Shown piece after piece: positions 1 to 27,202 of a stretch of 27,202 bases of DNA (position 1 is its first letter; every line of letters starts with the position of its first letter). A program made the translations under genes and the position numbers. The notes below the pieces were generated by a model that did not search any database, had not been told where the DNA came from, and saw only the letters and a list, made by a program, of their open reading frames with translations. Source of the stretch: Cochliopodium minus (lineage: Eukaryota; Discosea; Himatismenida; Cochliopodiidae). The stretch lies in contig JAMYWO010000359.1 of NCBI GenBank assembly GCA_024220525.1, forward strand, positions 8,903-36,104. The letters run 5' to 3'.

Positions 1-77
1 AAATAAATAAATAAATAAAAATGAAAAAGAAATTTTGGAAAAAGAAAATACCTCTTCCATAAATGACTTTGTTGTTA
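1..77. repeat. Left copy of a 77-base terminal direct repeat
   Basis: Bases 1-77 are identical to 27126-27202, the last 77 bases of the window. The repeat holds an AAAT run, the 5' end of a Roco intron and the last 26 bases of a Roco COR exon (52-77 of exon 52-215, minus strand). It is not low-complexity throughout, so chance identity is excluded. It reads as an overlap that closes the sequence into a circle of 27125 bases. Confidence 0.97.
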
Positions 78-3000
78 TCGATGGGGAAACGAGGCCATTT
101 ATCAGGGAGGGGAGGTTTAGGTAACAAATTAGGAATGAAAGCAGTTGTTTTTATTGAATCTGTTGGTCTTCCACATATTACTCCCTTTGTCTCCCTCACT
201 ATCAACTCAAACACCCTTTTTTAAATAAAAAAAAATTAATATTCACGTAACATTAAAATAAACCAAAAAATAAATAAAATAAAATAAAATATTAAAAAAA
301 TAAAATAAAACATATAAAATTAAAAATAAAAAATAACAAAATTAAAAATAATAAAATATTATAAAATAAAACATAAAACAATAAAATATACTAAAACTGT
401 TTAATAAAATCATAAAAAAAAAAAGGTTACGATCTCCAGAGATGAACGGGAAAAGATTGGTTTTGGTTCCATATTACTGGAAAATCTTTTAATTTCAAAA
501 ACCCTGTCAACACTTCTTGTGACTATTTTTTATAATTTAATAATTTAATAAATAAAGAATATATAAAATAATTTAATTTAATAATTTATAAAGAAAGTAT
601 AAAATAATTTATAAAGAATGTATAAAATAATGAAAGAATTGTAAATGTAAATAATGTAATTAAATAAATAATGTAATAAATTATAAAATAAAATAAAATA
701 ATGATTGAAAAAGAAGAGTAAAAAAGGAATGATAAATATTTTTTTTTTTGTTATTTTTACGAATAATTTTTCTTCCAAGTAATAAAGCCAGTTGGGATTT
801 AAAATGACCAAATTTGCTTGAGGATCTGGAAACTCATATACCACTATCTTTCCTGTTAACAAATAAAATAAAATAAAATTAATAAAATAAAAATAAAAAT
901 AAAATAAAAATAAAAATAAAATAAAATAAAATTAATAAAATAAAATAAAAATAAAATAAAAATAAAATAAAATAACTTTATGAAATAAATAAAAATATTA
1001 TGTTGTAAAAATTATTTTTTTATTGAATTACCGATACGTTGAAGATATTGAGAAACGGTGGAGATTTCATTGTCTTGAATGTTGACATATTTAAGGGAGG
1101 AAAGAAAATGAGAATAAGTGAGGGCAGGTGCATAACTTGTCACTGTTTGAAGTTGTGATATCTTTGTTTCTGCTAATTGCAAATAGTATGGAATCTTATT
1201 ATTCAAAAAAAAATCAATTCAATAAGAAATAAAAATAAATGATCAAAAAAATAAAAATAAAAAAAATAAAAAAAAAAAAAAATTCAATAAGAAATAAAAA
1301 ATTTTCATTTAAATAAGAAATGAAAAATATCTAATGAAACAAATATTGAAAAATATACCTGATAAAATAAAAAAACACCAAATTAACAAAAAACAAAAAT
1401 AAATGAAAAACAAAAAGTAGTTGTAAAAGATCTTGTAAGCTGAAAATAAAAAAAATAATTAATTCAAAAAGAAAACAATACCAAATTAATTAAAATGATA
1501 AAAATAAAATATATAAAATTTTAAATATAAAAAATAAAAATAAAAATATATAAATTTAAATATAAAAATTTAATTTTTATTTTACCTCGTTAGAAAAGAT
1601 TTCTTCTTTGGCAGCAGTGGAGTAGAGATAAGTTTTGAGAGTCAAAACACCTTCATCATTTTTTTTGGTGGGGTTGGTAGCATGAAAAGGAGTTTGCAAC
1701 ATGTCATAATCATCTCCATAAGTTTGGTAGATGTCATTATACAAATTTGTTATTTTTTCTTGAGTCAAATATACACTGTCTGCGTGTGTTCCACAAATAA
1801 ACACTGGTGACTTTGGTGCTTTTTCTTTAATTTTCTTCAACCAAAAATCTATAAAAAAAAAAAAAGTTTAAACAAAATGATTTAAAGAATATCCTTTTTT
1901 TTTTTTTGAAAAGAAATGAAATTTTTTTATGATTAAAAAAAATGAAAAATAAAATAAAATAAAAAAATAAAAAATAAAAAATAAAATATAAAAAAATAAA
2001 AAAGTAGAAAAGTAAAAAATAAAATCATAAAAATAAAAAATAAAAAAGTAGTAAAATAAAAATAAAAAAATGTGTTTTTTTTTGGGAGTACCAATGTTCA
2101 ACTCTTCGAAAGGTTTGGTATAATCAACAACAATGACATAAATGGAAAAATCAGAAAAGTGATGAGACCAAGTGTTGATATATAAATCATCGTATTTAGG
2201 ATTAAAATCCCACACCTGAAATATTATTGGGTTTTGTATTGGACTATCTTCGTTCACTGCTTTATACTCAAATGTGTGTCTAATAAACTTTCCATACCTT
2301 TTTCAAAATAAAATTTAAATGAAAAACACAAAAAAAATTGTTTTAAAAATAAAAATAAATAAAATAAATATAAATTAAAATAAATATAATAAATAAATAA
2401 AATAAATAAAAATTAAAAATAAAATATGAAAAATATAAAAAAATATGGATAAACCTGTTGCGGTGTTTTTTTTTGTCTTCTTGGTATAACTTTTTGGCTT
2501 GGGAAACAATTTCTTCTTTGGGAGGATTGTTTTCAATGGTATTATTTGCGTTGTTTTGGTTTGTTGGTTTATTCGTTTCTGGTGTTTGCGCTTTTTTTAA
2601 AAAATATCAAAAAAAATTAATGATAATAATGAAAATAAATATTAAAAATTTTAAAGAAATTAAGAATATTAAAATAAAAAAATATCAAAGTCTTAAAAGT
2701 ATTAAAAGTATTAAAAATATTAATGCAGATTTAGTTTTTTATAAAGTAATAAATGGGAATAAAAAAAGTGGGGAAATATTACGTTTCAAGTCCACAGTAG
2801 ACATGACAGAGGAACGAAATTGAGACTTTTCCATATTTTCAACTTCTTCCAATTGTTTCCTTTCTTCATTCAATGATGCTTTCGATACTTTTGATAATGC
2901 CGTTGACAATGTAGTTTTACCTTTACAAAAATTAAAAAAATTAAAATATTAAATAAAATGAAATAAAAATATTAAATAAAAAAATATTAAATAAAATCTT

Positions 3001-4536
3001 TAAATATTAAAAAATAAAAAATTTTAAATTTTTAAATTTTTAAAGATAAATATTATTTTTAAATGAAAAAAGAATACCAGATTTAGGATCACCAACCAAA
3101 TAAACTTTAACTTTTTTCTTAGTTTTGGGAATTTTGACATATTTTTGGATATCTTGCAAAAAGTTTTCACTGTAATTCAATGACAACAAATTTTTTGTTA
3201 AATCAAGCTTCAAAAAAAAAAAATTAAATAATATGAAATGATTAAATTTAATAAATTAAAAATAAATAATTTTTAAAATTTAAGAATTAATTTTTTTTTA
3301 CTTTGGAGATTTTAGTCATTAAAGGAAAATCAGAGGGGAGACCTTCATCAACAATTTTATTTCCTTTCAACAACAAAGTTTCTAAATTGGTGAGTAAACC
3401 GATGGTGTGAGGTAATTCTTTCAAATCATTAAATTCCGCTGTCAAAGTTTTCAAACTCATACACAATCCTATTTTCTCTGGTAGTTCTTTCAATTTGTTT
3501 TTATTTATGTTCACCATCTGCAATTTCGTCAAATTTCCCAACTCATTACTAATTATAAAATAAATGGTTATAAAAAAATGATAATCAAAAGATAATAAAA
3601 AGTTTCTCAAATCCATTATTATTTTTTTTTAAATAATTATACATAAATTAACTTTTTTAATTATATAATAATTTATCTTATTTAATTAATAATTATACAT
3701 AAATTATCTTTTTTTAAAAAAAAAAATTTACCTTATATATTCGATTTGATTATGACTGATATCCAATTCACGAAGGTTGGAAAGGAATTTAATGTTTTCA
3801 TCAATATATTCGAGAAAATTCTTTTGGAGATTCAAAACGCACAAGTGTGATAAATTATAAATATGAGAATTTATTGTAAATTTGACTCTTTGATGCAAAG
3901 TCAATGTATCTTTTCCTGATTGACACTAATTAAATTGTTAATTATTCTCCCAATAAAAATAAATTCCTTTTTTTGTACCTTTCTATAATTATCATTTTGT
4001 TCCATATAATTCTGTAATTTCTCGGTGTACTCTGGTGTAATAAACTCCCAATCTATATCTGAAAAAAATTCAATAGGATCTTCTCTATAAGCAAATGTCC
4101 TTAAATTCCATTTTGATTCTATCGCTTTAAGAATCAATTCACATCCTGGATTGCTCAATCTTAGAAGAAAAAAAAAATGAGAAAATATAGAATTTCAAAA
4201 ATAAATTTACTTGACATTTATCATTGTTAAATTGGTGAGGGTTGTATTGACATTTATTCCATCAACAAGTGCCTTTAATCCTTGTCCAATATCTCCTCCT
4301 ATTCTTCCCAATAATTCAGGATTTTCAGATAAATCAAGAGATTTTAAACATGTAGTTCTTTTTAGCCAATCTGATATACAAACTGCATGCCCAACCTTTA
4401 ATTTCATTTTTGATAATTTGGCTTCTGTCAGACTATCCTCATTTATTGATTGATAAATTTTATCCCATTTCGTATTTGACTGAATTAGAAAATTTCTAAA
4501 TCAAAAGGATATACTTAAAATGAAAATCTATACCAT
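52..4536 (-). CDS. Roco protein (LRR-Roc-COR-kinase), N-terminal two thirds; continues at the right end of the window
   Basis: This part encodes residues 1 to about 759 of a Roco-family GTPase/kinase. Exons, 5' to 3': 4534-4536, 4211-4479, 3979-4159, 3732-3925, 3302-3548, 3078-3207, 2783-2920, 2455-2590, 2092-2297, 1586-1848, 1032-1194, 761-852, 431-522, 52-215. All joins are GT-AG and in phase. Leucine-rich repeats fill residues 30-310. The Roc GTPase domain follows, with P-loop GDPKSGKTTLS split across two exons, and the guanine motif GTHAD. The switch II position reads DFNPKYD, so the usual DxxG glycine is proline. The COR domain begins at IPYYLQLAE and includes VILNPNWLYYLEE and FIPNLLPKPPLPDKW. 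The start codon is the last three bases of exon 1, before a 54-base intron; it is the best in-phase ATG but the least certain part. The last exon ends in phase 1 and pairs with the exon at 26881 across the window ends. Confidence 0.88.
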
Positions 4537-4699
4537 TTTCAAAAGACAACAATTTTTTTTATATTTGAATTTTCTCTGATTTTTTTAACAAAATTAAATA
4601 AATAAATGACTGATTCAAAGCTTTTTCAGAGAGATGGAATCTTTTTGATATTTCAAATATTTTTCATTTTAGTGTTGGTAATTGAAAAAATAAAAAAAA
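4537..4699. promoter_or_regulatory. Short shared upstream region of the Roco and PB1/F-box/WD40 genes
   Basis: The Roco start (4536, minus) and the PB1/F-box start (4700, plus) are 163 bases apart and point away from each other. The sequence is AT-rich with poly-A just before the plus-strand ATG. I see no defined factor site. That it drives both genes is inferred from position only, and weakens if Roco has a further 5' exon. Confidence 0.4.
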
Positions 4700-7408
4700 A
4701 TGTCTTCCAAAGAGGGAATTATTAATGTCAAAGCAATCTACAAAAATCAATTCAGACGAACCAAAATGGAATTGACAACATTTGAAGAATTAAAACAAAA
4801 ACTCAAAGAAATATTTAATATTGAGGATTCCAAGGATATAGAAGTATTATATTTAGATGATGAAAATGATTACATAACAATTTCAACAGACTTTGAATTG
4901 GAAATATCGTTGGATTTTATTGTTAAAAATTTGTTAAAGCTGAAAATAGTTAAAATGGCTAATAAATTGAAGAAAGAAACAATTCAATTTACAAATGCAA
5001 TAACATCATTAGATACCATCTACAATCAAGAAAATTTACTCAAAATAGAAGAAATAGAAAGAATAGAAGAAAATAATTCAACAAATGGATTAGTACAAGA
5101 AGAAAAAAGTGTGATACATTTAGAAGAAGAAATGATTGAGAAAAATCAGTCAAAAGAATCTCTTTTAATGGTTTCTGAGAATTCAATGATGTTCTCCGAA
5201 GATTCAAAATGGATCGTTATTAAACCTTCCTATGGCAAAAATCATCTCCTCTCTACCTTTCCTGATCTTTTGATGTTGTATATCTTTGGCTATTTGGATT
5301 TGAAGGGATTAATTTGTGTATCAAGAGTTTGTACTGAATGGAGAAGATTAACCAACGATAAAAAATTATGGAAAGAATTCTACACCAATAATTTCATCAA
5401 AAAGAAAAATCCCTCTTATAAAATCAACAATTACAATCATCTCATCAATTTAAATAATTTTGACAATTTAGATAAAAATTCACTGAATAAAAATAACAAT
5501 AATTCTTTGAAAGAAAACATTAGTGAAAATTTTGCGGTAGATTGGAAAGAGAAAGTAAAAACTAAATATATCCTTGATACCAATTGGAGTACTGGTGAAT
5601 ATCTTTCCAATAATTTAAGAGGACATACCGCATGGGTCACCGGTATAAAAAAATAATTTTTTAAAAAAAAACATTTTTTGGAAATTTCAATTAATTCTTT
5701 TAAACAATTTAAATTTAAAGGATTGGATTTTCATTCAAACAAATTGGTAAGATAATACTTTATTATTTCTTTTGTTGTTTTTTTAATAAAATTTTTTTAA
5801 AATTTAATAAATAATTAAATAAATAATTAAATAATTAAATAAATAATTAAATAATTAAATAAATAATTAAATAAATAATTAAATAAATAATTAAATAAAA
5901 TAAATAATTAAATAAATTAATAATTAAATTAAATTAATATAATTAAATAATTAAACTAAATAGGTGAGTTCATCATATGATGGGACAATAAGGTTGTGGA
6001 ACACCCAAACAGGAAACACTCTTTTATTACTTTCCAACTCTAATACTCAAAATACTCCCAACCCTCTTCCCCTTCAACCCAACAGCCCTCCTCCCCCTCC
6101 CGTTTGGTGTGTTGGTATGTTTGAAAATGAACAAAAAGTAAATTTTTTTTTTTTTATTCCAATAAAATTAATTTTTATTTTTAAATATAATTAAATGAAT
6201 AAAATTTATTTTTATTTTTTATTATAATTAAATGAATAAATTTTATTTTTATTTTATTTTAAATATAATTATTATTTAAAACTTTAATATTTATAAAATT
6301 ATTTTTTAATTTAATTATTAATTTAACTTTATCAAAAAAAAAATAGGTAGTGACGGGAAGTGGAGATGCAAAGATAAGAATGTGGGATTTAAATATAGGA
6401 AAATGTTATGCACAATACAGAAAACATTTAGGTGGTGTTAAAGCTCTCAAAATCGATCACCAAAAAGTTATTACTGGCAGTGATGATAAAACTGTCAAAA
6501 TTTTTGACATAAACAGGTAAAATAAAATAATAAATAATTAATATAAATAAATAAAATAAAATAATAAATAATTAATATAAATAAATAAAATATAAATAAA
6601 ATAATATAAATAAAAAAATAAAACAAAAAAATATTAAATATTTAAAATTAGTAATTTAAATTTTTTAAAATGGTTTAGTGGACAAGTAGTAAAAACGATC
6701 CAAGAAGAAGGAGCAGTGAGTTGTTTGACTTTTGACAAAAATCTGCTTTTCACATCCACCAAAACGAGTTGTAAAATTAGTTGTTTTGATTTAAGAAAAT
6801 ATGAAAAACTGTTTGAATTTGTTGGACATAAAAAAGCAATATACACCCTTTCTTATAATCCCTCTACTAAAATTTTGGGTAAAAAAAAAAAAAAAATACA
6901 ATTTTTTTTCAAATTAAATTAATTTTTTAAAAAATTAAAAATAAATTCTTTTAATCTAACATAAACAAAATTTTTTTTTTAAAAGCGTCAGGAGGAAGAG
7001 ACAAAAGTATTTTTTTGTGGGACGAAAATTGCAACGTTTTGAAAAAGTTGACAGGACACAGATACAGTGTGATGACTTGTCAAATAGACGATGAAAAAGT
7101 TGTATCAGGTGGTGCTGGTAAAAATAATTAAAATTTTCTTTAATTTTCTTTATTATTTTTTTAAATTTTTTAAATTTTTTATTTTTTTTATTTTTTTATA
7201 TTTTTTGTTAGATAACACAATTAGAATTTGGGATATTCATCCTTATGATAATGTAGCTTGTAGACAAATATTACAAGGACATGGTCAAATGGTCACTACT
7301 TTAAAATTTGACAGTGAAAAAATTATTTCGGGAAGTGCAGATAGGACCTTAATCGTCTCTGATTTTTCCCATAAAAAAAAAGGAGAAAAGTTTAATTTTT
7401 TTGGATAA
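4700..7408 (+). CDS. PB1, F-box and WD40-repeat protein (candidate SCF ubiquitin-ligase substrate receptor)
   Basis: Seven exons, 4700-5642, 5721-5746, 5964-6137, 6347-6516, 6679-6878, 6986-7117, 7212-7408, all in phase, give 613 residues. Residues 8-90 are a PB1 domain: a basic patch (VKAIYKNQFRRTK) and an acidic OPCA-type motif (YLDDENDYITISTDFEL), so it could bind both acidic and basic PB1 partners. A low-complexity acidic stretch follows. An F-box lies near 180-225 (FPDLLMLYIFGYLDLKGL, then CTEWRRLTNDKKLWKEFY). From residue 305 there are about seven WD40 repeats, including GHTAWVTGLDFHSNKLVSSS, SGDAKIRMWDL, GSDDKTVKIFDI and DNTIRIWDI, expected to form a propeller. By family knowledge the F-box would recruit Skp1/cullin and the propeller the substrate. 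The ATG follows a poly-A run and opens the PB1 domain. Whether the complex forms is inference. Confidence 0.9.
5805..5955. repeat. Tandem AATTAAATAAAT-type repeat in intron 2 of the PB1/F-box/WD40 gene
   Basis: An intron stretch built from near-perfect repeats of about 12 bases, mixing ATAATTAAATAA and AAATAAATAATT. It contains no coding potential and ends just before the acceptor at 5962-5963. Confidence 0.8.
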
Positions 7409-7590
7409 ATCAAAACTTTTTAAAAATCTTTAAAAACCCAAACTATTTTCTTTATATTCTTTAAAAAAAGTTAAAAGATATAAAGTTTGAGTTCAATTTA
7501 AAAGAAATATAAAACCATAATTTTCTTTTATGAATTTTTAATTCAAATAAAAATAATAAAAATAAAATAAAAAAAATCAGAAATAAACAA

Positions 7591-10551
7591 ATGAAAATTA
7601 ACTTCAAAAAGATTTCATTCAAGCCTAATTTTTTCAAATGCAGATTCCTTTCTTCTCATGCATCCCAAAATTTTAATGTTGATAGCTGGAACGAGAATAA
7701 TGGTGTTCTATTAGATAAAAACAAAAATATTCTTTTAAATACACTCACCTTTCCTGATCAAAAAATATTTTGTGGATTGGATTCATTGAAAGCAACATTC
7801 AATGCATTATTAGATGTAAACAAATAATTTTAAAACCAACAAGATAAAATTAAGAACCAAATAATATTTATAAATTATTCTTTAATTTATCTTGTATCTA
7901 TTATCTTTTCATATCTTACCTTTAATTTTAATTTTATATTTTCAGTTATTATAAATAATTTTCCTTACTTTCCTTTCTCCAGAAAACAAATGGAAAAGCT
8001 CAAAATACATTGATTGTAACAGACAATGGTATCTTCAAAAAAACCGAAGCAATAAACATAACAAAGAGTTCATTGGAAACCAAAATGAAGAAAATATCAA
8101 TTTACAGTGAAACTAAGGAAAATCCATCTGTCCATGATGTTCTCAATATAACAAAGAAATATCTGGAAAATGATTGCGATAATATTATTGCAGTTGGAGG
8201 TGGGGTAAATGAAAGCAAACAAAGAATAATAAAATATTAAAATTCAAAAAAAGTTAAAAAAAAGATTATCAAGATAAGAAATTTTTTATTCAAAAAAAAA
8301 TTTTATAAATATTATTATTTAGGGTCCTATGGATGCAGCAAAAGGTAATTTAACAAATTAAATTAATTAAATTAATTTATTATATTGTTTGATTTTAATT
8401 TATTATTTATTATTTATTTTTTAAAAAAAAATAGCATCAGCAGCCATGATAGGGAGAATTAAAATGGGAAATTTCTACGACTTAAACTCTGAAGAGGCAT
8501 TGATGTGGACTGTTAAAGATTTGAAACAATTATTGTCTACTGGTCAATTTCCTAAAGAAGCTTCTCAAAACATTCCCCCTTTAATTTGCATTCCTACCAC
8601 TGCTGGTATATTTTTTGATTTTTTTTTAATTTAATTTATATTGTTCATTTTTTTTTGATTATTTAAGATTTTTTAATTATTTAAGATTTTTTTAATTTTT
8701 TTTTATTTAATTTTTAAAATTTTTGAAATTATTTTTTTTTTTAAGGAACTGGAAGTGAAAGTGGAAAGAGTAGCGTAATAGCAGATAAAAATGGAGTAAA
8801 GTATGTTTTGGGACATCCTTCTTTCATGCCTTTGTATGTTGCTTTGGGTATAAATATCTCTTTAAAAAATAAATTTTAAAAACAAATTAATTTAAATATA
8901 TTAATTAAAATAATTTTAAAAATAAATTAATTAAAACCAAATTAATTAAAACCAAATTAATTAAAACCAAATCAATTTAAATATATCAATCAAATAATTT
9001 AATCAATAAAAATAATTTTTTATAATTTTATTTTGTAGCTCCTCAACTTACTTACTCCATGCCTCCTTCCCTCACTTCTTCCACTGTAAAAAAAAACACT
9101 TTTAAATCATATTCTTTTCTATTTCATTTAATTACTTCCTAAATTGTTATTTTATTTAATTATTAATTTCATAATAATTCATTATTAATTTAATAATTCA
9201 CAATTAATTTATTTTAATTTAATTATTAATTTAATAATAATTTTGTTTAATTATTAATAATAATTTTGTTTAATTATTAATTTATTTTTCTAAAATTCAT
9301 TTAAATTAAAAAAAATTAATTTAAAAAAATTATTTTTAAAAAAAAAGGCAGTGGATGCATTGTTTCATTGTTTGGAAGCATATTTGGTGACAGACAAAGA
9401 TGGGTTTGAAGACGGATTGGACAGAGAAGGGATAGATAACTGTGATCATTTCGCATTGGAAGGAATTAAATTGATTTTAAAACATTTGTCTTCTGCCCTC
9501 GCTTCTCCTCAATCCCCCAACTCTCGTTTGTCCCTCTTAGTTGGTGCCAGGTATTTAAATTTTTTTTTGATTTTTTTTTTTTTCAAATTTGTTTTTACTT
9601 TACATTTCTTTTTTTCTGTTCTTATTTATTATATTTCATATTTCATATTTTATTTCATTTTATTTTATTTTATTTTTATTTGTTTTATTTTTATTTTATA
9701 ATTATGTTTATTTATTTTAAATTATTTTTAAATTTAAATTTCTTCTTACAAAAAATTCTTTGAAAAAATAGTCTTGGTGCAAAGGCATTCAGAAAAGGTG
9801 CATTGGGTACTTTATTTTATTTTTTAAAAAATAAAAAAATTAAATTTTTTCATTTCCTTTTTTTTATTTGTCAAAAGGTGCTGTTCATTCCACTGCTCAT
9901 GCTCTCGGATTTGCTTGTCATATTCACCATGGTACCGCCATCGCAAGAATGTAATTTTATTAATATTTTGCAAATTTTATTTTCTTATTTTTATTTTATT
10001 CAAATTTTATTTTCTTATTTTTTTTTCATTTTATTCAAATTTTACAAATTTTATTTTCTTTATTTTTATTTTTCTTAATTTTCATTTTTTTTTTATTTTT
10101 ATTTTATTTTCTTTATTTTTATTTAAAATTTTAAATAGTTCATTTCTCTTTATTTAAAAATGTTTATTTCGTTATTTTTTTTAAAAAAAGGTCCGTGCCA
10201 GTTACCAATTACAATGAAACATTGTTAAAGAGAAGAAAAGAAGGAAACAATTTGACAAAAGAAGACGAAGATTCCCTCAAAAAATTGGCAAACCTCTACT
10301 CCCTCTTTAAAAACGTTGGTTTTGTAAACAATGATCCAACCCACTCCCTCAGTAATTCCATGATTGAATTTTTGAAATCAGTAAAGTTGAATGTGGGAAT
10401 CAAAGATCTCCTCCCTTCTGGCCAAACTCCTGATTCTTTCATTGATTCTTTAACTCAAATTGCTTCCAATGATGCTTGTCAAACCAATTTGATCAGATTA
10501 GATTCTAATGATTACAGATCCATCTTTCAATACGCAAATAGATCTTTCTAA
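7591..10551 (+). CDS. Iron-containing alcohol dehydrogenase family protein, probably mitochondrial
   Basis: Ten exons, 7591-7815, 7983-8204, 8323-8344, 8435-8605, 8746-8847, 9039-9085, 9348-9550, 9772-9806, 9878-9950, 10191-10551, all GT-AG and in phase, give 486 residues. The first 25 residues are basic, lack acids and end RFLSSHAS, a typical mitochondrial leader. The nucleotide-binding motif GGG-GPMDAAK is assembled over a 22-base exon, followed by PTTAGTGSE. All four usual metal ligands can be placed: Asp and His of AVDALFHCLEAY, His of HSTAHALG, and His of HIHHG. The enzyme should be an NAD(P)-dependent, divalent-metal (iron-type) oxidoreductase. The length is near that of hydroxyacid-oxoacid transhydrogenase (ADHFE1), but its C-terminal part (SVPVTNYNE onward) does not let me assign that activity. 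An AATAAA lies at 10575, just after the stop. Confidence 0.88.
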
Positions 10552-10670
10552 TTTATCTTTTTTCCCCTTTCAATAATAAATTACTTTAATTTTCCACCAA
10601 TTTGGTTTTTGATATTAATTATTTATTATTTAATTATATTATTTTTTTTATAATCAAAATAAAAAAAAAA

Positions 10671-15418: not shown

Positions 15419-18400
15419 ATGATCAAGGTTGATGAGATTCTTGATAAAATTTATTTGGATTCAGATTTAACAACGAGATTAGAAGAAATATTAAATAAGA
15501 ATTTCTCAATATGCAATTGGGACTTTTGGAAAGATGTAATCTTGATGATAAAATTGAGCCAAGAAACAGATCATTCAGAATTTGTTGGGAAGATCAAAAA
15601 TCTATTTTCACAAGCTCATGAAAAATATCTTCTTGAGAATTCGCAAGATGAAATATCACTCTCATTGATCTCTAAAAATAAGTGGATGAATTTTATCAAA
15701 TCAATAGAAAACAATGAAATCGGATTTGAGAAAGATTTGATCTCTTTTTTATATCAAGTGAAAAAGGAGATAGAAAGATTGATGATATATGATGTTTCTA
15801 TATTCAGCCAAGAGAATAAATTGAATCAATCATCCTTGTCATCAACACCAAGAAAAGAAGAAAAGAAATATACCCAAAGAGATGTAAGAAATGCTCTTTT
15901 GAATCAAGTATCAAACAATCCATCAACAAATCCGAGCGTATCGAAGAAAATTATAAGTATATATTCTTCAAAATTTCTTACGATAAAGCAATTCCAATTT
16001 TTTTTTTTTATATAATTTTATATCAGACTTTAAAGAAGATAATCAGTTAGATATATATGAAAATTTAAAGAAGATAGGAGCAGGTAAAATTTTCAAACTT
16101 TTTTCCTTTTCATTCTTTGTTTATTTAATTTTAAAAGAATTTCAAATCAATTTCTCTCAGGATCATTACACAAGTAATAAAGATATAGATGAAAATCAAT
16201 CTGTATTTTCATGGGGAATATCGAATAAAGGATCTCTTGGAATAAGTGGAACCTCGCAAACATCAAAACCAACGTTGATTCCAATGTTCATCGGAACATC
16301 AACAGAAAAGAGAATAAAAGATATCTACTGTGATAATTCAGAGAATACTATATTTTTAAATGAAGATGGTTATTTATCAATCAATTTCAAAAACATTTTT
16401 TTTTTAATCGGAATTAATTTATTCTTAGGAAACATTTATATAAGCGGAAACTATGTCAATTCAGAAGTTCCTATCAGGGTAGAATTCCAAATCAAATTGA
16501 ATGTTGTACTCGCTCAATTATCAGAAGAATATTTGATCCTCCTAGATGCTTCAGGGAAAGTATACACCTCCAAACTAGAAAAGATAAGCAGCTCCAAGAT
16601 GAAATTAAGAAAAGATGAAAATGAAATCGTCTCATTGGTGGAATTAAAATTGAATGAGAAGATCATCAAGATGGCTACATCAAGCAACTACTCTTTGCTA
16701 TTATCCCAAAAAAATGTGGCCTATTTCTATGGCCCTATCTCAAAATTAAGCTCATTACAAAAAGGAATGGAGGGAGATCAAGAAGAGAGCGGATTCATCC
16801 CTTTATCATATTCAAACATCATCGATTTGGATTGCAGCAAAAACAGTTGTGTATTCGTGGATAGCGAAGGAATAATCCATTGTTTGGGATTATTGAATTT
16901 GGACAGGCAATACAAAAATGGAATTGAAATTTTCAAAAAGATGTTTATCACACAGATAAAATGCACGGATGATTTTTTTGTATTTTTAAATCATTTGGGA
17001 AATTTTTTCATTTTTAATCCCAAACACAAACTCTTCAAACAAACCATCCCCAACCTTTCCTTTTCTTTGTTCTCCTCTTCCGTCAAATCTGTCACAATCA
17101 ACCAAAACCAAATTTTGGCTTTGAATGATTCTGGTGAGGTAATAAGTTTTGGCTTTGGTTCCGATATTCTTGGACTAGGTAAATGGAAAATTTATAAAAT
17201 ATTTTCTATTTAAAAAAATTTATAAAATGTTTTCTATTTAAAAAAATTTTAAACATTTTTTCAAATAAATTTTCTTTGTAAAATTTATTTTTTAATATTT
17301 TTTCAAATAATTTTATTTTTTTTAAATAATTTTTAATATTTTATGTTTATAAAATTTAATTAATTTTTTTTAAAGGAAGCAATGTTTCTCCAAATAATTA
17401 TATAGCACCTCAAACGATCACCTCCATAAGGAACTATGTGATTTCAAAGATAGTGACATGTGACAACTCTAGCTTTGCACTCACCGAAAATTCTAAGGAT
17501 CAAAAAAAGATGATTTTGTCTCATTTGTTGCAGATACAGAGGATTCATTGCAGGGAACTTTTCAGTTTCGCTCATCTTTATTGCTCTAAAATTTCCAAAC
17601 TCAAAAATTCCAAGCTTCACAAACTCGCGCTTAAAATTCAAAGTTATCAAGATATGGTTCTTGTATCTCTGAACAAATGTATTTTAATCTTAAATTAATT
17701 ATTATAAAATTTTAATCTTTTATTTTTAATTAATAAATATTAAATATTTTTTATATTTATTATTATTGTTATCTTTTAATTAATTTTTTGAATTCAAACA
17801 TACAGATTATTTTTATTTATTTTTTTTATCATTTTATTTATTGAAGATTAAATATATTTTAAATTTATTTTATCATAATTATAATTTTTTATTTATTATT
17901 TTTGAAAATCTGTTCTTTAAAGTAAAAAATTTAATTTTTATTTAATTCTATTATTATTTTTTTAAAATTTTATAAAAAATTATTTAAAAAATAAAGATTT
18001 AAATACACCAATTTGGAACGAAAAAGAAATGATAGAAAATATTTTTAGATCTTTAGCTTCAGAGTCATGGGTATCTTATTATTCGAAATGGACCATTATG
18101 ACACAATCAGTATACAACACCTACCCTCTCAACAAAGGTTCCTCCATAAATCAAATGAAGGAATCCCAAAAATTTGTAACTAAAATTCAAAAGAAGGATA
18201 GTAGAGAAGAAAATGAAAGAAATTTTGATTTTCATAATTTGTACTTTTTTTTTAAATATTTTTTTAATATATTTTTTTATTTATATTTTTTTAAATTATT
18301 TTTAATTTTTTTTCAAGATTACAAGCTCCACAAAGACACTTGTCAGCTTTATTTTTGTTTGTGGAAGAGTTGATCAAAGTGACCCCTAACAATCACCCGG

Positions 18401-21400
18401 ACTACAATTTCCTTTCGCTTTTCAAAACATTTCTGTTGAAATGTGAGAGCAAAGTAGAAAACGTTCATTTTCAAGAAACTTTCACCAAAATTTTGAAAGC
18501 AAATTCGCTTATTTTCTCCAAATCCAATTTAATCAAGACTGTTTCCCTTGTATTTTCCTTTTTTTTTTAATTTTTTTAATTTTTATTTTTTTTATTTTTT
18601 ACATTTTATATTTTTGTTTAATTTTAATTTATTTTGTTGATTTTTATTTATTTTGTTCATTTTATCTAATTATTTTATTACTTTTTATTACTTTATATAT
18701 ATTTTTATATATTTTTATTTTTTTTTAATTTTTTATTTTTTTTATCACTTTTATTTTTTCATTTTATTACTTTTATTTTTTTATTTTATTTTATCTTATT
18801 TATTTATTTTTTTGAAAAAATTCATTTTTAAATCAGAAGCAAAATCACACGGAAAACCATGATAATTCCAATATACCAAATAACACAAGTACAAGAGTTA
18901 GCTCCCAAATCAAGCCTCAAAGAAAGAGCATTACAGACATCAATTTCGACGAAGATGTAATTAACAATACTGTTCCATCTATTTCAGAAGGTTAAAATTT
19001 CAATAAATTATTCATTTTTTTTTATTCATTTTATTGATTTTATTTTAATTATTTTCTTATTTTTATATATATATATATATTTTTTTTTTATTTTTATTTT
19101 TATATGATAGAATCAAACACAAATAAATCGAATGCAAATATAGACTGGAAAGGGGAGTATGAAAAAGCAAGTGAGTTAATTGTAAAAATGAAGATAGAGA
19201 ATGAAACCCAAATCTCCAACTGGAAGAATAAATATGAAAAAATGGAAGAAAGGTGAAAAAAATTTAAATAAAAAAAATAAAATTTTTTTTTTTATTAAAG
19301 AATATTTTCCCAAATAAATTTTAAATATTTTTTTTTTAAAAAAGAATGAAAGTGTTTGAAGGAGAAAGGGAATTTATTTTCAATAAAATGAGCAACATGG
19401 AAGTAGATTTATCGAAACAGAAACAAAAATATATAAAAGTAATTTTAAAATTTTTTTTTTTTCAAAAAATAAAATTTTAAAAAACAATAATTAAAAAAAT
19501 AATTAAAATGAGAATTAAAATGATATTTTGAAAAAGGCAAAAATAGAAAGCAAAAAGAATGAAATTTCTAATTTTCAATTGGATGAGGAGAAATTGTCTT
19601 TGAATGAGACAGTCAGTAGTCTTTCAAACAAATGTGCCATCCTCAAAGGAAAAATTGAGATGATCGAAAAAAGTTGTACTTTTGTTGAAATAAGGTTATT
19701 CAAAATTGAAGACTTTTTTTTTTGATTTTATTAATTAAAATTATTTAGATTTTTTTTATTAAAATTTTTTTGTTCAAATTTATTTAAACAAGATTTTTAT
19801 TGAAAGTTTTTTTTTTATTTTATTTTTATTTTAAATTTTTATTTTTTGTTTTAAATTTTTTTTTATTTTAAATTTTTATTTTTTATTTTAATTTTTTTTT
19901 AGTGAAATGACCAAAAAGATGGAAAAATTGGCGATGGAGAATGCGATGTTGAAAATAAAACTGGAGACGAGCAATTTAGTTCAGCTGAGATTCAAAGACC
20001 TCATTCAACAACATCCTCACTCTTCAAGAATTCCCAATGATATCTTTAGACAACTCTTCATCCCTCCCAATGTAGAAAACATCTTAGGTATATTAGAATC
20101 AGATAATTAAAAATAAAATTAAAAATTAATAATTTAAAAATAAATAAAATAAATATAAATACAAATTACCAAAAATTAAAAATAAAATAAAAAAAATAAA
20201 TAAAAAATGAAAAATGTGATATTATTAAACTAATTAAATTAAAAATGAAAATAAATAAATAAATAAAAATAAAAAAAATAAAAAAAAAATTAATGAAGAA
20301 AAAATAAAAAATTAATTAACAGATAATTAAAAATAAAAATAAAATTAATAATTTAAATTAAAAAAATAAAAATAAAAGTTACCAAAAATTAAAAATAAAA
20401 ATAAAGAAAATAAATAAAAAATGAAAAATGTGATATTAATAAAATAATAAAAATAAAATAAAATTAAAAATTAAAAATTAAAAAATTAAAAAATAAAATT
20501 AACTAAAAATAAAAAAATAAAAATAAAATAAAAAATTAATAAAGAAAAAACAAAAAATTAATTAACAAAAAAATATGTGCAATTTAAATTTTATTCTTTC
20601 TATTCTTTAGACACAAACCAAGAATTTGAAAGAGAAAAAAATAATAATAATGGAGATAGTAGCCATGAAAACAATAACAATCAAATCAGTAGAAATTGTA
20701 GTTCAAACGAAATGCTGGAAGTTAAAGATAACAAAGGTAAGCACTTTAATCATTGCTGTTCCCAAAAACTTTAAAATTTATTTATTATACTTTTAAGTAA
20801 CAGAAGAAATGCATATTAAAAAAGAGACTAACAATAATATCAATAACAATAACAACAATAACAACAATAACAACAATAACAACTTTGATCTCCCTTCCTT
20901 CTTTTTAGATACACACATCATGATGAAAAACTCGAATGAAGGGAAAACTCTTTTGGACATTGACAATGTTTTCACTGCAGATATCATATCCACAGAAGAT
21001 GGACAGAGTTTAAAAGGGGGAACTTTGGTTAAAAAATTTTTTCTATACATTTCTCTTTTTTTTTTAAATTTTTTTTTTTTTTATTTATTTCTCTTTTTTT
21101 ATTTTTGAAAATTTTTTTTTTTGTTTCATTTCTCTTTTTATTTTCCATTTTTTTAATAAAAAAGGATAAAATTTTGGAATGGTTATTCATCATGGGAAAA
21201 CCACACTTTGAAAGCTTTTTGCTCTTTTACCAATATTTCACCACTCCACTCAATGTCTTACGCAAAACCATTTACATTTATTGTGAATCAAGTCCCAATG
21301 ATTTTTCCAACAATTCTAATTCCAACATCATTGTAATTTTTCATTTAAATTTGATAACAATTTTTTATCTAATTAAATTAAATTAATTTTTTATTTATTT

Positions 21401-21764
21401 TATTAATTAATTTATCTATTTTAATTATTTATTCATTTATTATTTTTATTTTACCGAAAATAAAAGAAAAATGGATCAGAATCAGAAGAAAACACAAATG
21501 AAGAAACAAGCAATACTGATAATGACAAAGAAAAAATGTGGAAGAATATTTGCAGATTCTTAAAAATCTGGATAACAAAACAAACAATGGATTGGGTAAT
21601 ATTTTTTTAATTAAATTTTCAACAAAATTTTTTTTTTTTCTTTAAAGGTGGATAATGAGAAATTGCAAACAGAACTCTTTCAATTTTTTGATGAAATAGT
21701 CTCCGTTACACTTCCTTCTTTCCCAATTCACTCACTCAAACAAAAAATTAAAATTGCTCAAAAA
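15419..21764 (+). CDS. RGS-like / RCC1-like / RhoGEF (DH) / coiled-coil / RasGEF_N fusion protein, 3' end missing at the gap
   Basis: Seventeen exons join in phase (1271 codons, no stop): 15419-15956, 16027-16083, 16183-16368, 16429-17178, 17376-17678, 17997-18240, 18318-18549, 18837-18990, 19111-19252, 19345-19438, 19537-19694, 19903-20087, 20611-20736, 20798-21027, 21165-21332, 21467-21595, 21648-21764. Residues 15-130 resemble a divergent RGS domain (FSICNWDFWKDVILM, then a helical C-terminal part). Residues 205-545 are RCC1-like blades (VFSWGISNKGSLG, FLNEDGNIYISGNYVN, SFGFGSDILGLG). Residues 555-760 are a Dbl-homology RhoGEF domain; its conserved helix reads LQAPQRHLSALFLFVEELIK then TPNNHPDY. 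No PH domain follows. Residues 825-1000 are charged coiled coil. After an Asn run comes RasGEF_N (LKGGTL, FESFLLFYQYFTTPLNVL, ICRFLKIWITKQTMDW). The catalytic CDC25 domain should come next but the sequence breaks at the N at 21916. The gene would tie G-alpha, Rho/Rac and Ras signalling in one chain; activity is inferred. Some donors (for example 18549 versus 18540) are uncertain. Confidence 0.82.
20101..20566. repeat. Diverged tandem duplication inside a long intron of the RGS/RCC1/DH gene
   Basis: The intron 20088-20610 holds two copies of the same roughly 220-245 base segment, 20101-20320 and 20321-20566. Shared landmarks in the same order are AGATAATTAAAAATAAAA (20101, 20321), TTACCAAAAATTAAAAATAAA (20166, 20379), ATGAAAAATGTGATATTA (20207, 20421) and AAAAAATTAATTAAC near the end of each. 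Offsets of 213-246 show small insertions and deletions since duplication. The sense strand is A-rich, unlike the gene's other, T-rich introns. Confidence 0.8.
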
Positions 21765-21847
21765 GTAAACTTTAAATTTTTTTTAATTTTTTTATTTTTA
21801 TTGTTACTTTTATTTTTTTGTTATTTTTTTTTGTTATTTTTTTTTTT

Positions 21848-21915
21848 ATTTTTATTTTTATTTTTATTTTTATTTTTATTTTTATTTTTATTTTTATTTT
21901 TATTTTTATTTTTAT
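21848..21915. repeat. TTTTTA microsatellite ending at the N
   Basis: About eleven perfect copies of TTTTTA immediately before the ambiguous base at 21916, inside what would be the intron after RasGEF_N exon 21648-21764. Such runs are common assembly break points. Read on the minus strand it is an A-rich TAAAAA tract, the kind of tail some LINEs carry. Confidence 0.9.
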
Positions 21916-21916
21916 N
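21916..21916. other. Single N: ambiguous base or collapsed assembly gap
   Basis: The only N of the window. To its left is a microsatellite in a RasGEF intron; to its right, directly, is minus-strand LINE endonuclease sequence. Neither the rest of the RasGEF gene nor the LINE reverse transcriptase is found on the far side. I read it as a gap of unknown size rather than one uncertain base. Confidence 0.75.
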
Positions 21917-22380
21917 AAAGATTACAATCAATCATGAGTTTCTTGAAAGTATTTGCTCTACGTATTTTTTCCAAGATTGTGTCTTCTTTGAGTTCTTTTT
22001 TGTCAAGTCTTTTGTAGTCGCGTTCTGTGTCCATGTATTCATTGAAATCGCCTGCAATGATCATATATTCTTTTCGAGGGTATTCGTGCTGAGGTTAGGG
22101 TTGTTTTTTAGGTTGGGGTTATAGTAGGAGACAAGTTTGAAAGAAAAGTTGTGGTTCTTTTTCAACATTCAGATTTCGATTACTCTGTGAAATGGTTTGT
22201 TAAAGAGTCTTTGAGGAATGAGAGTGGCAAAGCCATGCCTAGCAGGTTCAGCAGTAACATTGTTGCAAAAGATCCAGAAACTTTTTTTTGTTACTTGGTT
22301 GATGAAAAATAAAGTTGATGATTAGATGTTTTTTCCTTTGCTAATTCAACAAGTAAATTCACAGCATGCTGAAAAGAAAA
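21917..22380 (-). mobile_element. Decayed LINE (non-LTR retrotransposon) fragment, AP-endonuclease region of ORF2
   Basis: On the minus strand the pieces RHGFATLIPQRLF (about 22224-22246 onward), SFKLVSYYNPNL, and EYMIIAGDFNEYMD (GDFN at about 22039-22056) followed by ANTFKKLMIDCNL match the endonuclease domain of LINE-type elements, where GDFN carries a catalytic Asp/Asn pair. The pieces lie in order but in two reading frames, with a stop between VIEI and MLKKN and a frame change between NPNLKNN and EYMIIAG, so this copy is dead. An upstream piece, HAVNLLVELAKEK (about 22330-22370), may belong too. The element is cut by the N at 21916; no reverse transcriptase is present. GC content is higher than in surrounding non-coding DNA. 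Confidence 0.75.
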
Positions 22381-23725
22381 GAATCTTTGGAAAAAAAAAA
22401 ATAACAGATATTTTTAAAAAATAAAATAACTTCAATCATTTTTTTTTTTTTTTGCTTTGTTGATAAGGGAATCGGAACCGACCTACATGCAATGTTTCTT
22501 GAGGAGAAAATTCTGATCTACAAGGACGCACCATTAATTATATTCAATCTCTACCAATCTGAATTGATCACAATTACGAAGAAACAAATAGCAATCTTCG
22601 AAGAAATGGAAAAGTTTTTTCTTTTTGAGAGAACCTCAAAAAAGTTTCAAACGGAACTGAACTCTTTCACTTCTTCTCTCTCAACCATGTTCATTTTGGT
22701 CTGGAAAAGAAAAAACAAGTTGTGAAAAGAAGTAATCGAAAAAAAAGCAGTTTACTAAAAAAAAAAGAAGTAAACGGAAAAAAAAAAAAAATAAAAATAA
22801 AAATAAAAATAAAAATAAAAATAAAAATAAAAATAACTTGAATATAAGGATGGAAAATTTTGATTTTCTTTGTATCCTTCTTGTTTCAACTCAGTAACTT
22901 ACGGAAAGATTTCAAATGTCTCCTTCTTTTCTTTATTTTTGTCAAATTTTACGAAAAGTTGTCAAACAAATGTCTCAAACCTTCTGTGCTGCTTTCTGAT
23001 TTCTGAAACAAAATAATTCTTTTTCTTTCTATTCTTATTTTAATCTCATATAACCAAGGGATCTCAATAGAAAATAAAAAAAAGATGTGAAATATCAAAA
23101 AATAAATCAAAAAAAATAATCTTTCTCTTCAAAATCTTCTTTTCAATGCTACAAGGAAAGATGTCAAATATAGAAGAGTCTTGATAATCATTCTTGGACT
23201 TCCAATTTGGAGTCTACCAAATGTTGATTGAATTATCTGGAATAATTTTACTTTTTGTTTGATTATGTTTAATATTTTAAATAAAGATATCCCACTTTTT
23301 GGGTGTTTTAGATCAAAATAATCTAAAAAATTTCCAAAAAGCTGTTCTACGATAAAGACTTTACCTGTTCTTTTCACCAAACCAAAAACTTTGGGTGGTT
23401 AATAAAAAAGTGTGATCAACAAAAAGAGATCCATTTCAAACAAAATTGGATCATGCACCAGAATTTCAATCTTTAAAAACTTTTGTAGAAACAAAGAAGA
23501 TTGAGAAATATTGGCAAAAAACTTGATAAGAAGAAAATTGAAAGGTGACAAAGACTGATTGAAAAAAAAAATTGAGTGCTTGGAAAATGGTAATTTGAAA
23601 ATGAAAATGAAGATCTCATAAAAAACAAACTTAAGTTCTGATTGTGGCAAATACTTCCATGGAAAAAAAATTAAAAATCAAATTTAAAGACATATTTAAA
23701 GACACTCTTTTTTTTTTCACTAAAT
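22381..23725. other. No recognisable gene between the LINE fragment and the Roco 3' end
   Basis: Apart from the AAAAAT tract I see no spliceable conserved exon. Short open frames exist (plus 22492-22725; minus 23129-23380 and 23399-23650) but none matches a family I know. The two minus frames lie upstream, in LINE orientation, of the endonuclease fragment, so they could be worn 5' parts of that element; this is speculation. The last bases before 23726 are the 3' flank of Roco. Confidence 0.5.
22790..22834. repeat. AAAAAT microsatellite
   Basis: About seven copies of AAAAAT. It is the reverse complement of the TTTTTA tract at 21848-21915, so the two bracket the LINE-containing segment as inverted simple repeats. 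Confidence 0.85.
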
Positions 23726-26447
23726 TCAATTTTTGTTTCCAATAATATTCCCAAAAAGATTGGAAATTTTGTCCAAGTTTTTAATTTCCCAAATGGAAGA
23801 AGACAAGGAACCATTGGTCCAACCAATTGAATCAAAGTCATCAAAAACATAAGAAGAAGGAGGAAGTAGAAGAGGAAGGGCATGTTGAACATTAAGGGAA
23901 TCATAGTTTAACTTGTTTTTTAAATCTACCAAAACAGAAAGACAAACAGGAAAAGAGGGACGTGATGGGGCATCTCCACTCCAACATTTTTGAATTAGTT
24001 TTTGAAAAGTTGGATGTACAGTTTCTGGTATTGGCTTTCTTTCTCCATTTATCAATTGTTTTTCCACTGCAAACATAAATTTTTCTCCTCCAAAAAAATC
24101 TATATTTTTTGTTAAATAATAAAAAAAAAAAGAAAACTTTTTAAAAAAAGAAAAATAAAAAAAATTTTTAAAACCTTTTCTTGTAACCAATTCCCATAAC
24201 ATTACTCCAAAAGCATAAATATCAGACTTTTCCAAAATAAATAATTAATTCAATTTTAATTATTTTTAATTATTTGTTATAATTTTTATTTTTTAATTTA
24301 TTTTTAACCTGATTTTTAATATTTAAATTATTTTTAATTTGTAAAAATTTTTATTTTTAATTATTTTTAATAATTTTTATTTCATTTTTTAATTTATTTT
24401 TACTTTTTCATCATAGAGATTTCCTTTTAGAATTTCGGGAGCTAACCAAATGGGATTATCAACTTGTCTTCCCTTTATGTAAGGTCCTACTGGTCTTGTC
24501 AACCCAAAATCCGCCACTTTTGCCACCACCTCACTATCTATCAACTCCGCTGCCATCAAAACCTTTTTTCAAAAAAATATTTAAAAAAATTATTTTTAAT
24601 TTATTTTTAATTTATTTTTAATTTATTTTTTAATTTATTTTTAATTTATTTTTAATTTATTTTTAATTTATTTTTAATTTATTTTTTAATTTATTTTTAA
24701 TTTTAAATTTAATTTATTTTTAATTTATTTTTAATTTTTAATTTCTTATTTTTACATTGGGAGTTTTCAAATCACGATGAATGAAAGGAGGAGAAATGGA
24801 ATGCATGAAAGACATACCAGCAGCTATATCTATTGCTATTTTCAACACTAATGGAAATGACAAATCTTTTTGTTCATTGTGTATGTACCTTTTTTTCCAT
24901 TAAAAAAAATTTTTAATTTTCCATTTTTTTATATTTTTTATTTTTTTATTTTTTTATTTTTTATTTTTTATTTTTTTTATTTTATTTTAATTTAATTTTT
25001 ATTTTATTTTATTTTTTGATTTTTTATTTTTTAAAATTTTATAAATTAGAGACCCATATAAGTCACCATAAGGAATGAATTCAGCAACAATCATGAGAGG
25101 ACTCAAACAAATACCTGTCAATTCACAAAGATTAGGATGTTTCAAATACTCCATCACCCATAATTCTCTTCGAAACTATTTTTTATTTTTATTTTTATTT
25201 ATTTTAAAATAAATTTATTTTTATTTTTATTTTTATTTATTTTTTTATTTTTAAAAAAAAAATATTCTCAATATTATCTTCAATTTTAAATATTTAATGA
25301 TAAAAATAAATTTACAAATTAATAAAATAATTTTCTCAAAAAATGATAAATTTAGAATTATAATAATGATGAGATAAAAATTATTTTTGATGTTTTTTTT
25401 TATTATTTTTATTATTTTTATTATTATTATTAACATTTTTTTTTTAGGAAAAGATACCTCATTGAAAGCTTCTTGAAAATCAAATTTTTTTTCAGCACGA
25501 GGTTTGTCTTCCCCAAACAACTTCTTAACAGCCACCACTTGTCCATTCAATTCTCCCTTTTAAAAAATATGACAAAAAAAAATTTTCAAAAGAAAAAGTC
25601 ATAAATTAAATAAATTAAAATTTAAATAAAATAAATAAAATAAATGAATTAAAAAATTAAAATTTAAAAATAAAATTAAAAATATTAATAAAAAATAAAT
25701 TTAAGAAAATAAATTAAAATTTAAATATTTTTTTTTTTACTTTGAAAACTTCGGCGAAAGCACCTTCACCTAAATATTTACCAAGAGTCACTTCTTTTTC
25801 AGTGATTTTATAGTCATTCAAATTATAAAGGAAAATGTCAGGTGCCATCAACTGTATAGAGACAGGTATTGGTTGATTCAAATAATACTCCTGAGAACAT
25901 GGTAAGGTCTTTTCTCCTTTATTATTTTTTATTTAAATTTTTATTAATTTTTATTTTGAATATTATTATTTTATTTTTATTTTTCTTTTATTTAAATTTA
26001 TTTTATTTACTCATTATTTTTTATTTTGTTTATTTTTATTTATATTTGACATTTTTTATTATTTATTATTTTCATTTTCATTTTTATTAATATTCATTTT
26101 ATTTTGTTTATTTAGATTTATTTTATTTTGTTTATTAATATTTATTTTATTTTGTTTATTTAGATTTATATTTTGAAAATAAATAGTTAAATTTAATACC
26201 TTTTACGATGGCACGTTCAAGAGAAAGGATGGGAAAAGTGGAGTAGAGGGGAAGAGATTTTTCAGAATTTAAACAATGAGTACAAAAAAGATTTAAAGAA
26301 GAAAAAGACTTTGGATAAAAATCACGAATTAATTCATCTATTATTTCTATTAAAAAAATAAAACTTTTTTCAACACTCCCTTCTCCTCCACTCACACTCA
26401 CATACATCACTTCTTCTTCACTACTGCCACTACTGCTACTACCACTG

Positions 26448-26506
<59 letters not shown>

Positions 26507-27177
26507 GCTATTACTGTTATTATTCCTTCCTATTCTCTTTTCCATCATCTTTTCTCCTCTTCTAACAAACAGTATGTCTATCTCCACTTCACTTTCTTTT
26601 TTTTTCATTAAATGAAAAAAAAATTAAAGTTCAAAAAATTTAAATTGTAAAAATTTTAAAATAAAAATTTTTTAAAATATTTAAATTTATTTAAAAAAAT
26701 AAAAAATAAAGAAAAAAGTAAACAAAAAAATAAAAATTTTTAAAAAAGAAAGAAAGGGTACCATCATTGGAGTCTAGTAAATTGATTTCACGACAAGTCA
26801 ATTCGGTGACTTTGAAAAAGGCAGATAATCTCACAAATATTTCCCCAAAAAACTCCTCTGGAAACTTTTTGAACACAAACTCTAAAAAATTAAATCAAAA
26901 AAAAAAAATTTAATAATAAAATGAATAAAAAATATAATTCTAATAAAATGAAAATAAAAAAAAAAATTAATAAATAAAATATATAATAAAATATAATTAT
27001 AAAATGAAAAATATTATAAATAAAAATAAATAATAAAAATAAAAATAAAAATAAAAATAAATATAAATATAAATATAAATAAAAATAAATAAATAATAAT
27101 AAATAAATAAAAATAAAAATATAATAAATAAATAAATAAATAAAAATGAAAAAGAAATTTTGGAAAAAGAAAATACC
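23726..27177 (-). CDS. Roco protein, C-terminal part: end of COR, poly-Ser linker, protein kinase domain
   Basis: Continuation of the Roco gene, residues about 760-1291. Exons: 26762-26881, 26207-26595, 25741-25890, 25458-25556, 25054-25175, 24756-24888, 24404-24562, 24175-24226, 23726-24099. The first exon is the COR C-terminal part (KKFPEEFFGEIFVRLSAFF). The next carries a Ser run from an AGT/AGC repeat. The kinase is of the tyrosine-kinase-like type typical of Roco proteins and looks catalytically complete: glycine loop GEGAFAEVFK, lysine in VAVKK, helix C FRRELWVMEYLKHPN, HRDLKTPN, DFG, APE, SDIYAFGVMLWE and the late RPSF arginine. A short tail of about 60 residues ends at TGA. The 26 bases 27177-27202 repeat the end of exon 52-215. 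Summed over both parts there are 3876 coding bases with no frame break. Confidence 0.9.
24590..24740. repeat. Tandem 11-base TTTATTTTTAA repeat in a Roco kinase intron
   Basis: The intron between the HRDLKTPN exon (24756-24888) and the DFG exon (24404-24562) consists largely of about twelve copies of an 11-base unit TTTATTTTTAA with occasional one-base length changes. No conserved site is visible in it. Confidence 0.85.
26421..26519. repeat. Trinucleotide (ACT)n tract encoding poly-Ser in Roco
   Basis: A nearly pure ACT repeat on the plus strand, read on the minus strand as AGT/AGC serine codons in exon 26207-26595. Being a coding microsatellite in the COR-kinase linker, it is likely to vary in length between strains without breaking the frame. 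Confidence 0.9.
26882..27125. repeat. AT-repeat intron of Roco that runs across the circular junction
   Basis: This stretch is the 3' part (in gene sense) of one 295-base intron whose donor is at 27176 (equal to base 51) and whose acceptor AG is at 26883-26882. It is made of AAAAAT, AAATAT and AAAT repeats and holds nothing else I can recognise. Confidence 0.85.
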
Positions 27178-27202
27178 TCTTCCATAAATGACTTTGTTGT
27201 TA
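27126..27202. repeat. Right copy of the 77-base terminal direct repeat
   Basis: Exact copy of bases 1-77 (offset 27125). The splice donor that ends Roco exon 52-215 is present here too, at 27176-27175 on the minus strand. The intron that begins there continues to an acceptor at 26883-26882. The length of 77 equals a k-mer size widely used in multi-k de Bruijn assemblers, so it may be the node overlap of a circular graph path. Confidence 0.97.

What the first reader, a model, noticed from the sequence alone, without database searches (positions are those of the whole stretch)
1..27202. The window closes into a circle of about 27.1 kb
The first and last 77 bases are identical (1-77 and 27126-27202, seen directly). 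Ordinary nuclear genes with spliceosomal introns are not expected on a 27-kb circle. Three explanations fit: a real extrachromosomal circle, one unit of a tandemly amplified chromosomal segment, or an assembly path closed on itself. A 77-base overlap equals a common assembler k-mer size, which supports a graph cycle but does not say whether the cycle is biological.
Basis: partly seen in the sequence, partly recalled or inferred. Interest (0 to 1): 0.85.

Follow-up and report, generated by a model that had tools for sequence, protein, structure and literature searches.

The report
Assembly overlap mistaken for DNA circle
The matching ends of this stretch look like an ordinary join mark left by genome assembly software, probably with two pieces of a protist chromosome printed in the wrong order, so there is no good evidence for a DNA circle.

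Summary
In detail: bases 1-77 equal 27126-27202, and one N sits at 21916. But the window is not a free contig. It is the last 27,202 bases of a 36,104-base scaffold (C354) in a 44.65 Mb genome; the 8,902 letters before it read N. It consists of piece A (1-21915), a one-letter join, and piece B (21917-27202).

The two junctions of the "circle" differ. B to A, through the 77-mer, looks real: a ROCO gene (LRR-Roc-COR, then kinase) reads through it in frame, and a paralogue has one open frame across that point. A to B, at 21916, is doubtful: A ends in (ATTTTT)n after a RasGEF_N exon, no RasGEF catalytic domain was found, and B starts in dispersed repeats. Another single-N join here fuses Chitinophaga-like DNA to this genome.

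Eleven of 23 assembly edges tested share an exact 77-mer with another place; two other segments self-close likewise inside larger scaffolds. Best reading: a linear locus in order B-A, scaffolded as A-n-B. No reads were available, so a circle or tandem copy is not excluded.

The parts
1..77 (.). 77-mer V, first copy (start of piece A)
   Evidence: identical to 27126-27202 and to C25:206464-206540
27126..27202 (.). 77-mer V, second copy (end of piece B and of scaffold C354)
1..21915 (.). piece A, between an N stretch and the single N
   Evidence: that it is one contig is inferred
21916..21916 (.). single N: one-letter scaffold join of A to B, judged doubtful
   Evidence: 11 distinct single N's in the first 48 loci
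21917..27202 (.). piece B, from the single N to the scaffold's end
   Evidence: that it is one contig is inferred
52..4479 (-). 5' part of a ROCO-type gene (LRR, Roc, COR-A); the first exon is approximate
   Evidence: exons from my script and by eye; LRR_8 3.4e-11, COR-A 5.6e-5 and Roc 4.4e-4, the last two below Pfam's cut-offs
23726..26881 (-). 3' part of the same gene (end of COR, serine-rich linker, protein kinase)
   Evidence: PK_Tyr_Ser-Thr 3.1e-52; in-frame 295-base GT-AG intron through V; paralogue on C29
20798..21765 (+). RasGEF_N exons, cut off before any RasGEF catalytic domain
   Evidence: RasGEF_N 1.3e-10; RasGEF profile finds nothing in the window, best E 21
21789..21915 (+). (ATTTTT)n simple repeat at the end of A
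21917..23356 (.). dispersed-repeat DNA at the start of B, with a retroelement-like endonuclease fragment on the minus strand
   Evidence: 85 genome matches, the window's own included, to pieces of this stretch; endonuclease similarity shown on another copy only, below cut-off

Best explanation
The 'circle' is an assembly artefact on an ordinary linear nuclear locus of an A+T-rich protist. The assembler worked with k = 77. The 77-mer V became a branching vertex, because two contigs run into it (B and a C25 contig) and one leaves it (A); contigs were cut there and each kept V. In the chromosome B is followed by A: a ROCO gene runs across V. The scaffolder joined the far end of A to the start of B with a one-letter gap, inside simple-repeat and dispersed-repeat sequence, and so printed A-n-B, whose two ends necessarily share V. 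Shown: identical ends, the third copy of V, the gene through V, repeats on both sides of the n, the missing RasGEF catalytic part, and the same 77-base signature at other edges of the assembly. Inferred: the assembler's k, the meaning of the single n, and that the A-n-B join is false.
For: Window is the end of a longer scaffold and both its ends are assembly edges. 11 of 23 tested edges share an exact 77-mer with another place. Two further segments bounded by n or N, C5:341222-351602 and C138:70492-73993, begin and end with the same 77-mer on the same strand inside scaffolds of 419,577 and 110,215 bases. The ROCO gene is continuous through V: frame and GT-AG splice sites and a C29 paralogue open across that point. 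A ends in a simple repeat, B starts in dispersed repeats. RasGEF catalytic profile: 21 of 21 control loci found, window not; 50 of 61 RasGEF_N places in the genome are followed by RasGEF within 4 kb. A single-n join at C138:70491 fuses Chitinophaga-like DNA to this genome.
Against: No reads or depth were available, so the n join was never tested directly. 11 of 61 RasGEF_N places had no listed RasGEF partner, so a missing catalytic part is not rare, and a weak or much-split domain could be missed by the profile. 12 of 23 edges had no exact 77-base partner. B's own first 77 bases had none, and A's last 77 bases were left out of that search as simple repeat. The paralogue match across V is weak by itself (E 0.009), and no Pfam COR model spans the junction. 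The mate-pair links behind the n join may be true.
Confidence: 0.85

Rival explanations
1. A tandem duplication or amplified array of a 27.1 kb chromosomal unit: both junctions are true, and the novel junction would be A to B, perhaps made by recombination between copies of the dispersed repeat at 21917-23356.
For: V gives a coherent gene, and dispersed repeats lie at the A-B junction, a usual setting for unequal recombination (general knowledge).
Against: The A-B junction is known only from a single n, a mark that elsewhere in this assembly joins bacterial-like DNA. No exit from the array into other sequence was seen: the third copy of V, on C25, runs into V from a PH-domain gene and is followed by N. 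Depth not testable.
Confidence: 0.06
2. A real extrachromosomal circle of about 27.1 kb (eccDNA) that carries nuclear genes.
For: The printed ends meet in a gene that reads through.
Against: Needs the same doubtful junction at 21916. The scaffold goes on to the left of the window, though those 8,902 letters read N and cannot be compared. The same self-closing signature occurs inside two large scaffolds. No reads.
Confidence: 0.04
3. The 77-mer is a true repeat shared by two or more ROCO paralogues, and A and B belong to different genes.
For: The genome holds many ROCO-like genes (60 COR-A matches at E 0.001 or better, many below the cut-off), and the 77-mer has three copies.
Against: The COR piece has a single non-self match, 33% identical, among the 4 matches; the best non-self match to the kinase half is 50% identical (C53, where 90 of 244 candidates were scored). 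The C25 copy lies beside a PH-domain gene on the other strand, with no kinase exon seen there, and B and C25 differ at the first base upstream; their further likeness is that of A+T-rich background (16 of 70 control pieces score as high).
Confidence: 0.04

Closest known systems
Contig-end k-mer overlap in a de Bruijn graph assembly (SPAdes-like, k = 77; recalled, the assembler is not documented here)
   Same: Contig ends share exact stretches of one length, 77, with other contig ends or interior places; some segments share it with themselves
   Different: Nothing, apart from the additional one-letter scaffold join inside the loop
Scaffolder misjoin at repeats (single-n negative-gap join as in SSPACE; convention recalled)
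   Same: Single n between non-overlapping pieces, simple or dispersed repeats beside it; a bacterial-eukaryote chimera at another single n of this assembly
   Different: For 21916 itself the misjoin is inferred, not shown
Extrachromosomal circular DNA (eccDNA)
   Same: Chromosomal genes with introns on a sequence whose printed ends meet
   Different: No evidence of circular molecules; one of the two junctions needed is a scaffold join
Tandem segmental duplication
   Same: One end-to-start junction plus repeats at the other
   Different: No copy-number evidence; no second copy of the unit in the assembly beyond the 77-mer

Membership tests
de Bruijn k-mer overlap artefact | Exact sharing of one fixed length at contig edges across the assembly | tested here: met
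   11 of 23 tested edges have an exact 77-base partner; the shared stretch stops at 77 or at an N where it could be compared
de Bruijn k-mer overlap artefact | Loop visible in the assembly graph without molecular support | not testable with these tools
   no graph and no reads held
Scaffolder misjoin | Join mark without overlap, at repeats | tested here: met
   single N between (ATTTTT)n and dispersed repeat
Scaffolder misjoin | The joined pieces are not neighbours in the chromosome | tested here: inconclusive
   RasGEF catalytic part absent from the window, but 11 of 61 RasGEF_N places also lack a listed partner
eccDNA or episome | Both junctions of the circle real | tested here: inconclusive
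   end junction supported; junction at 21916 unsupported
eccDNA or episome | Circular molecules, exonuclease resistance, raised depth | not testable with these tools
   needs reads or DNA
Tandem duplication | Raised depth, or flanks entering and leaving the array | not testable with these tools
   no reads; the C25 copy of V is followed by N
ROCO protein family (for the gene through the junction) | LRR, Roc, COR and kinase in order in one reading frame | tested here: inconclusive
   LRR and kinase over Pfam's cut-offs, Roc and COR-A below theirs but in order; Roc-COR part matches LRRK2 at E 7.3e-4, within the A side only

The most novel reading that the evidence does not exclude
A 27.1 kb segment of a protist nuclear genome with at least six intron-bearing genes exists as a circle or a tandem array, formed by recombination between copies of the dispersed repeat now at 21917-23356.
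Probability: 0.1. Interest if true: 0.5.

Novelty: not a real feature. Interest (0 to 1): 0.07.

Why it matters
It shows how the end of a scaffold that carries the k-mer of its own start can look like a circular molecule. In draft eukaryote assemblies, identical ends of length k should be checked against the whole assembly before they are reported as extrachromosomal DNA. Here that check separated a sound junction (the gene through the 77-mer) from an unsound one (the one-letter join). It also shows that the genome record holds a misjoined locus and bacterial chimeras.

Tried and rejected
Chance identity of the ends: rejected. Phage origin: no megablast match of bases 1-25000 in the phage collection. 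tRNA genes and Rfam families at gathering scores: none. Near-identical ROCO paralogues as source of the 77-mer: not supported. The (ATTTTT)n at A's end as the tail of a retroelement whose endonuclease lies in B: considered, not shown; copies on C23 and C121 gave no clear 3' end. Likeness of V's last bases to a repeat beside C25's gap: a chance extension made by my concatenated query. C537, whose RasGEF match lies 0.9 kb from its scaffold start and has no RasGEF_N's list, as the continuation of A: not decidable. Acrasis kona as source genome (similar size, recalled): rejected, that assembly used MIRA and SSPACE (passages of PMC11589745). Literature on single-n joins and k-length ends: listings and passages of PMC8110574 and PMC8849508 did not document the conventions; they are cited from recall. 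Illumina adapter words in the window: none of 5 patterns found.

Corrections on the way: the first RasGEF profile used several wrong-strand sequences and was redone. In one search I left out 4 of the 65 RasGEF_N rows as second exons, and could use only the listed part of the RasGEF rows. In one search, 8 of 31 edges were dropped as simple repeats, A's own end at 21915 among them.

Full report
Observation. The first and last 77 bases are identical; no other exact terminal overlap exists up to 1999 bases, apart from a single base; one N lies at 21916. The window is G000:C354:8903-36104, the last part of a 36,104-base scaffold in a genome of 44,654,751 bases and 598 contigs. So the left window end is not a molecule end. 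The 77-mer has a third exact copy, C25:206464-206540, directly before 1,582 N. Upstream of it, B and C25 differ at the first base; the remaining sides cannot be compared, because they meet N or the scaffold's end. A BLAST alignment of B and C25 runs on upstream at 81% over 244 columns, 77-mer included; the upstream part alone scores no better than A+T-rich background (16 of 70 control pieces score as high).

Two pieces. Single N's recur in this assembly: in the first 48 loci (175,152 bases, overlaps and N letters included) I count 11 distinct single N's and 5 long N runs. Several flank simple repeats. One abuts what I recall as the end of an Illumina adapter (C25:205488). I therefore read the window as piece A (1-21915), a one-letter join, and piece B (21917-27202). 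That a single n stands for an estimated negative gap is recalled from scaffolder practice.

The end junction (B to A) looks real. On the minus strand A carries LRR, Roc and COR-A sequence, and B a protein kinase (LRR_8 3.4e-11; COR-A 5.6e-5 and Roc 4.4e-4, both below Pfam's cut-offs; kinase 3.1e-52). That is the order of a ROCO protein. The Roc-COR part matches human LRRK2 at E 7.3e-4, within the A side only. Read through the 77-mer, a 295-base GT-AG intron (donor at window 51, acceptor at 26882) joins the two parts in frame. A ROCO-like gene on C29, which also has COR-A and kinase matches, has one open frame of 231 residues that aligns to the joined protein through the junction, without a gap at that point. 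The match is weak alone (E 0.009). In shuffles, A alone was reached by 93 of 2000, B alone by 25 of 2000, and the joined score by 0 of 2000 when only B was shuffled. The exon models come from a small script of mine plus reading by eye and are approximate away from this junction. No Pfam COR model spans the junction.

The other junction (A to B, 21916) is doubtful. A's last unique sequence is a RasGEF_N exon ending at 21765 (RasGEF_N 1.3e-10), followed by (ATTTTT)n that matches many places in the genome. A RasGEF profile built from 11 copies of this genome finds 21 of 21 control loci (E 3.6e-53 to 2.6e-11) and nothing in the window (best E 21). Of 61 RasGEF_N places, 50 are followed by a listed RasGEF match within 4 kb on the same strand and 11 are not, so the absence is suggestive, not decisive. 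B begins in dispersed repeat DNA: pieces of 21917-23356 have 85 matches in the genome, the window's own included. One part resembles a retroelement endonuclease (Exo_endo_phos E 0.0011 on a copy from C121, below cut-off). Of the 12 loci fetched, the window's own among them, 9 contain an N mark.

How far single-n joins can be trusted. At C138:70491 a single n separates 880 bases of about 35-45% G+C, with a sigma-70 region 2 gene cut in mid-frame (2e-14), from the following DNA. The protein is 83% identical to one of Chitinophaga hostae; the 4 relatives found are 3 Chitinophaga and 1 Puia. A bacterial contaminant joined by an n is the simplest reading; a horizontal transfer is not formally excluded.

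The 77-base signature is routine. I took 31 edges beside N marks or scaffold ends, dropped 8 simple-repeat ones, and searched the other 23 in the genome. Eleven of 23 have an exact 77-base copy elsewhere; 12 have none. For ten of the eleven the partner was compared letter by letter or by alignment and the shared stretch stops at 77 or at an N; the eleventh is V. Two partner copies lie in this window (23172-23248 and 23205-23281). Two cases repeat the window's geometry: C5:341222-351602 (10,381 bases, a single n on each side) and C138:70492-73993 (3,502 bases, n on the left, N run on the right, another n inside) start and end with the same 77-mer on the same strand, inside scaffolds of 419,577 and 110,215 bases. 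I read their ends, not all of their interiors. A 77-base closure is thus a mark of this assembly, presumably of its k.

Conclusion. The simplest history is a linear order B-A, cut at the 77-mer because two contigs run into it, and printed as A-n-B after a scaffold join over repeats; identical ends then follow automatically. A tandem array or a circle would need the n join to be true as well. Nothing in the sequence supports that join, but without reads it cannot be excluded. The copy of the 77-mer on C25 lies beside a PH-domain gene (PH 3.2e-6) and shows no kinase exon; it is probably a chimeric graph edge, which I did not prove. The other genes in the window look ordinary: an F-box/WD40 gene with a PB1 domain, an iron-containing alcohol dehydrogenase, a DUF4470 protein, a fimbrin-like CH-domain protein and an RCC1-like protein.

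Noticed in passing
L045:1-880 (G000:C138:69611-70490): Chitinophaga-like DNA with an ECF sigma factor gene, cut in mid-frame at a single N and joined to A+T-rich DNA of this genome: a likely contaminant chimera in the assembly.
   Followed up: partly
L006:4489-4503 (G000:C25:205488-205502): A single N followed directly by what I recall as the end of an Illumina TruSeq adapter, left in the assembly.
   Followed up: no
window 21917-23356; copies such as L059, L060: Dispersed repeat family with a retroelement-like endonuclease frame; on C23 a CCCH zinc-finger-like frame (by eye) lies near it. 85 matches of the window stretch in the genome.
   Followed up: partly
whole genome G000: Many signalling genes: 168 RasGEF exon matches, 65 RasGEF_N matches and 60 COR-A matches at E 0.001 or better.
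   Followed up: no
window 15353-21765: RCC1-like, RhoGEF and RasGEF_N domains follow each other on the plus strand and may belong to one large exchange-factor gene.
   Followed up: no
G000:C5:341222-351602 and G000:C138:70492-73993: Two more segments with identical 77-base ends on the same strand, bounded by N marks; they would look circular if cut out as this window was.
   Followed up: partly
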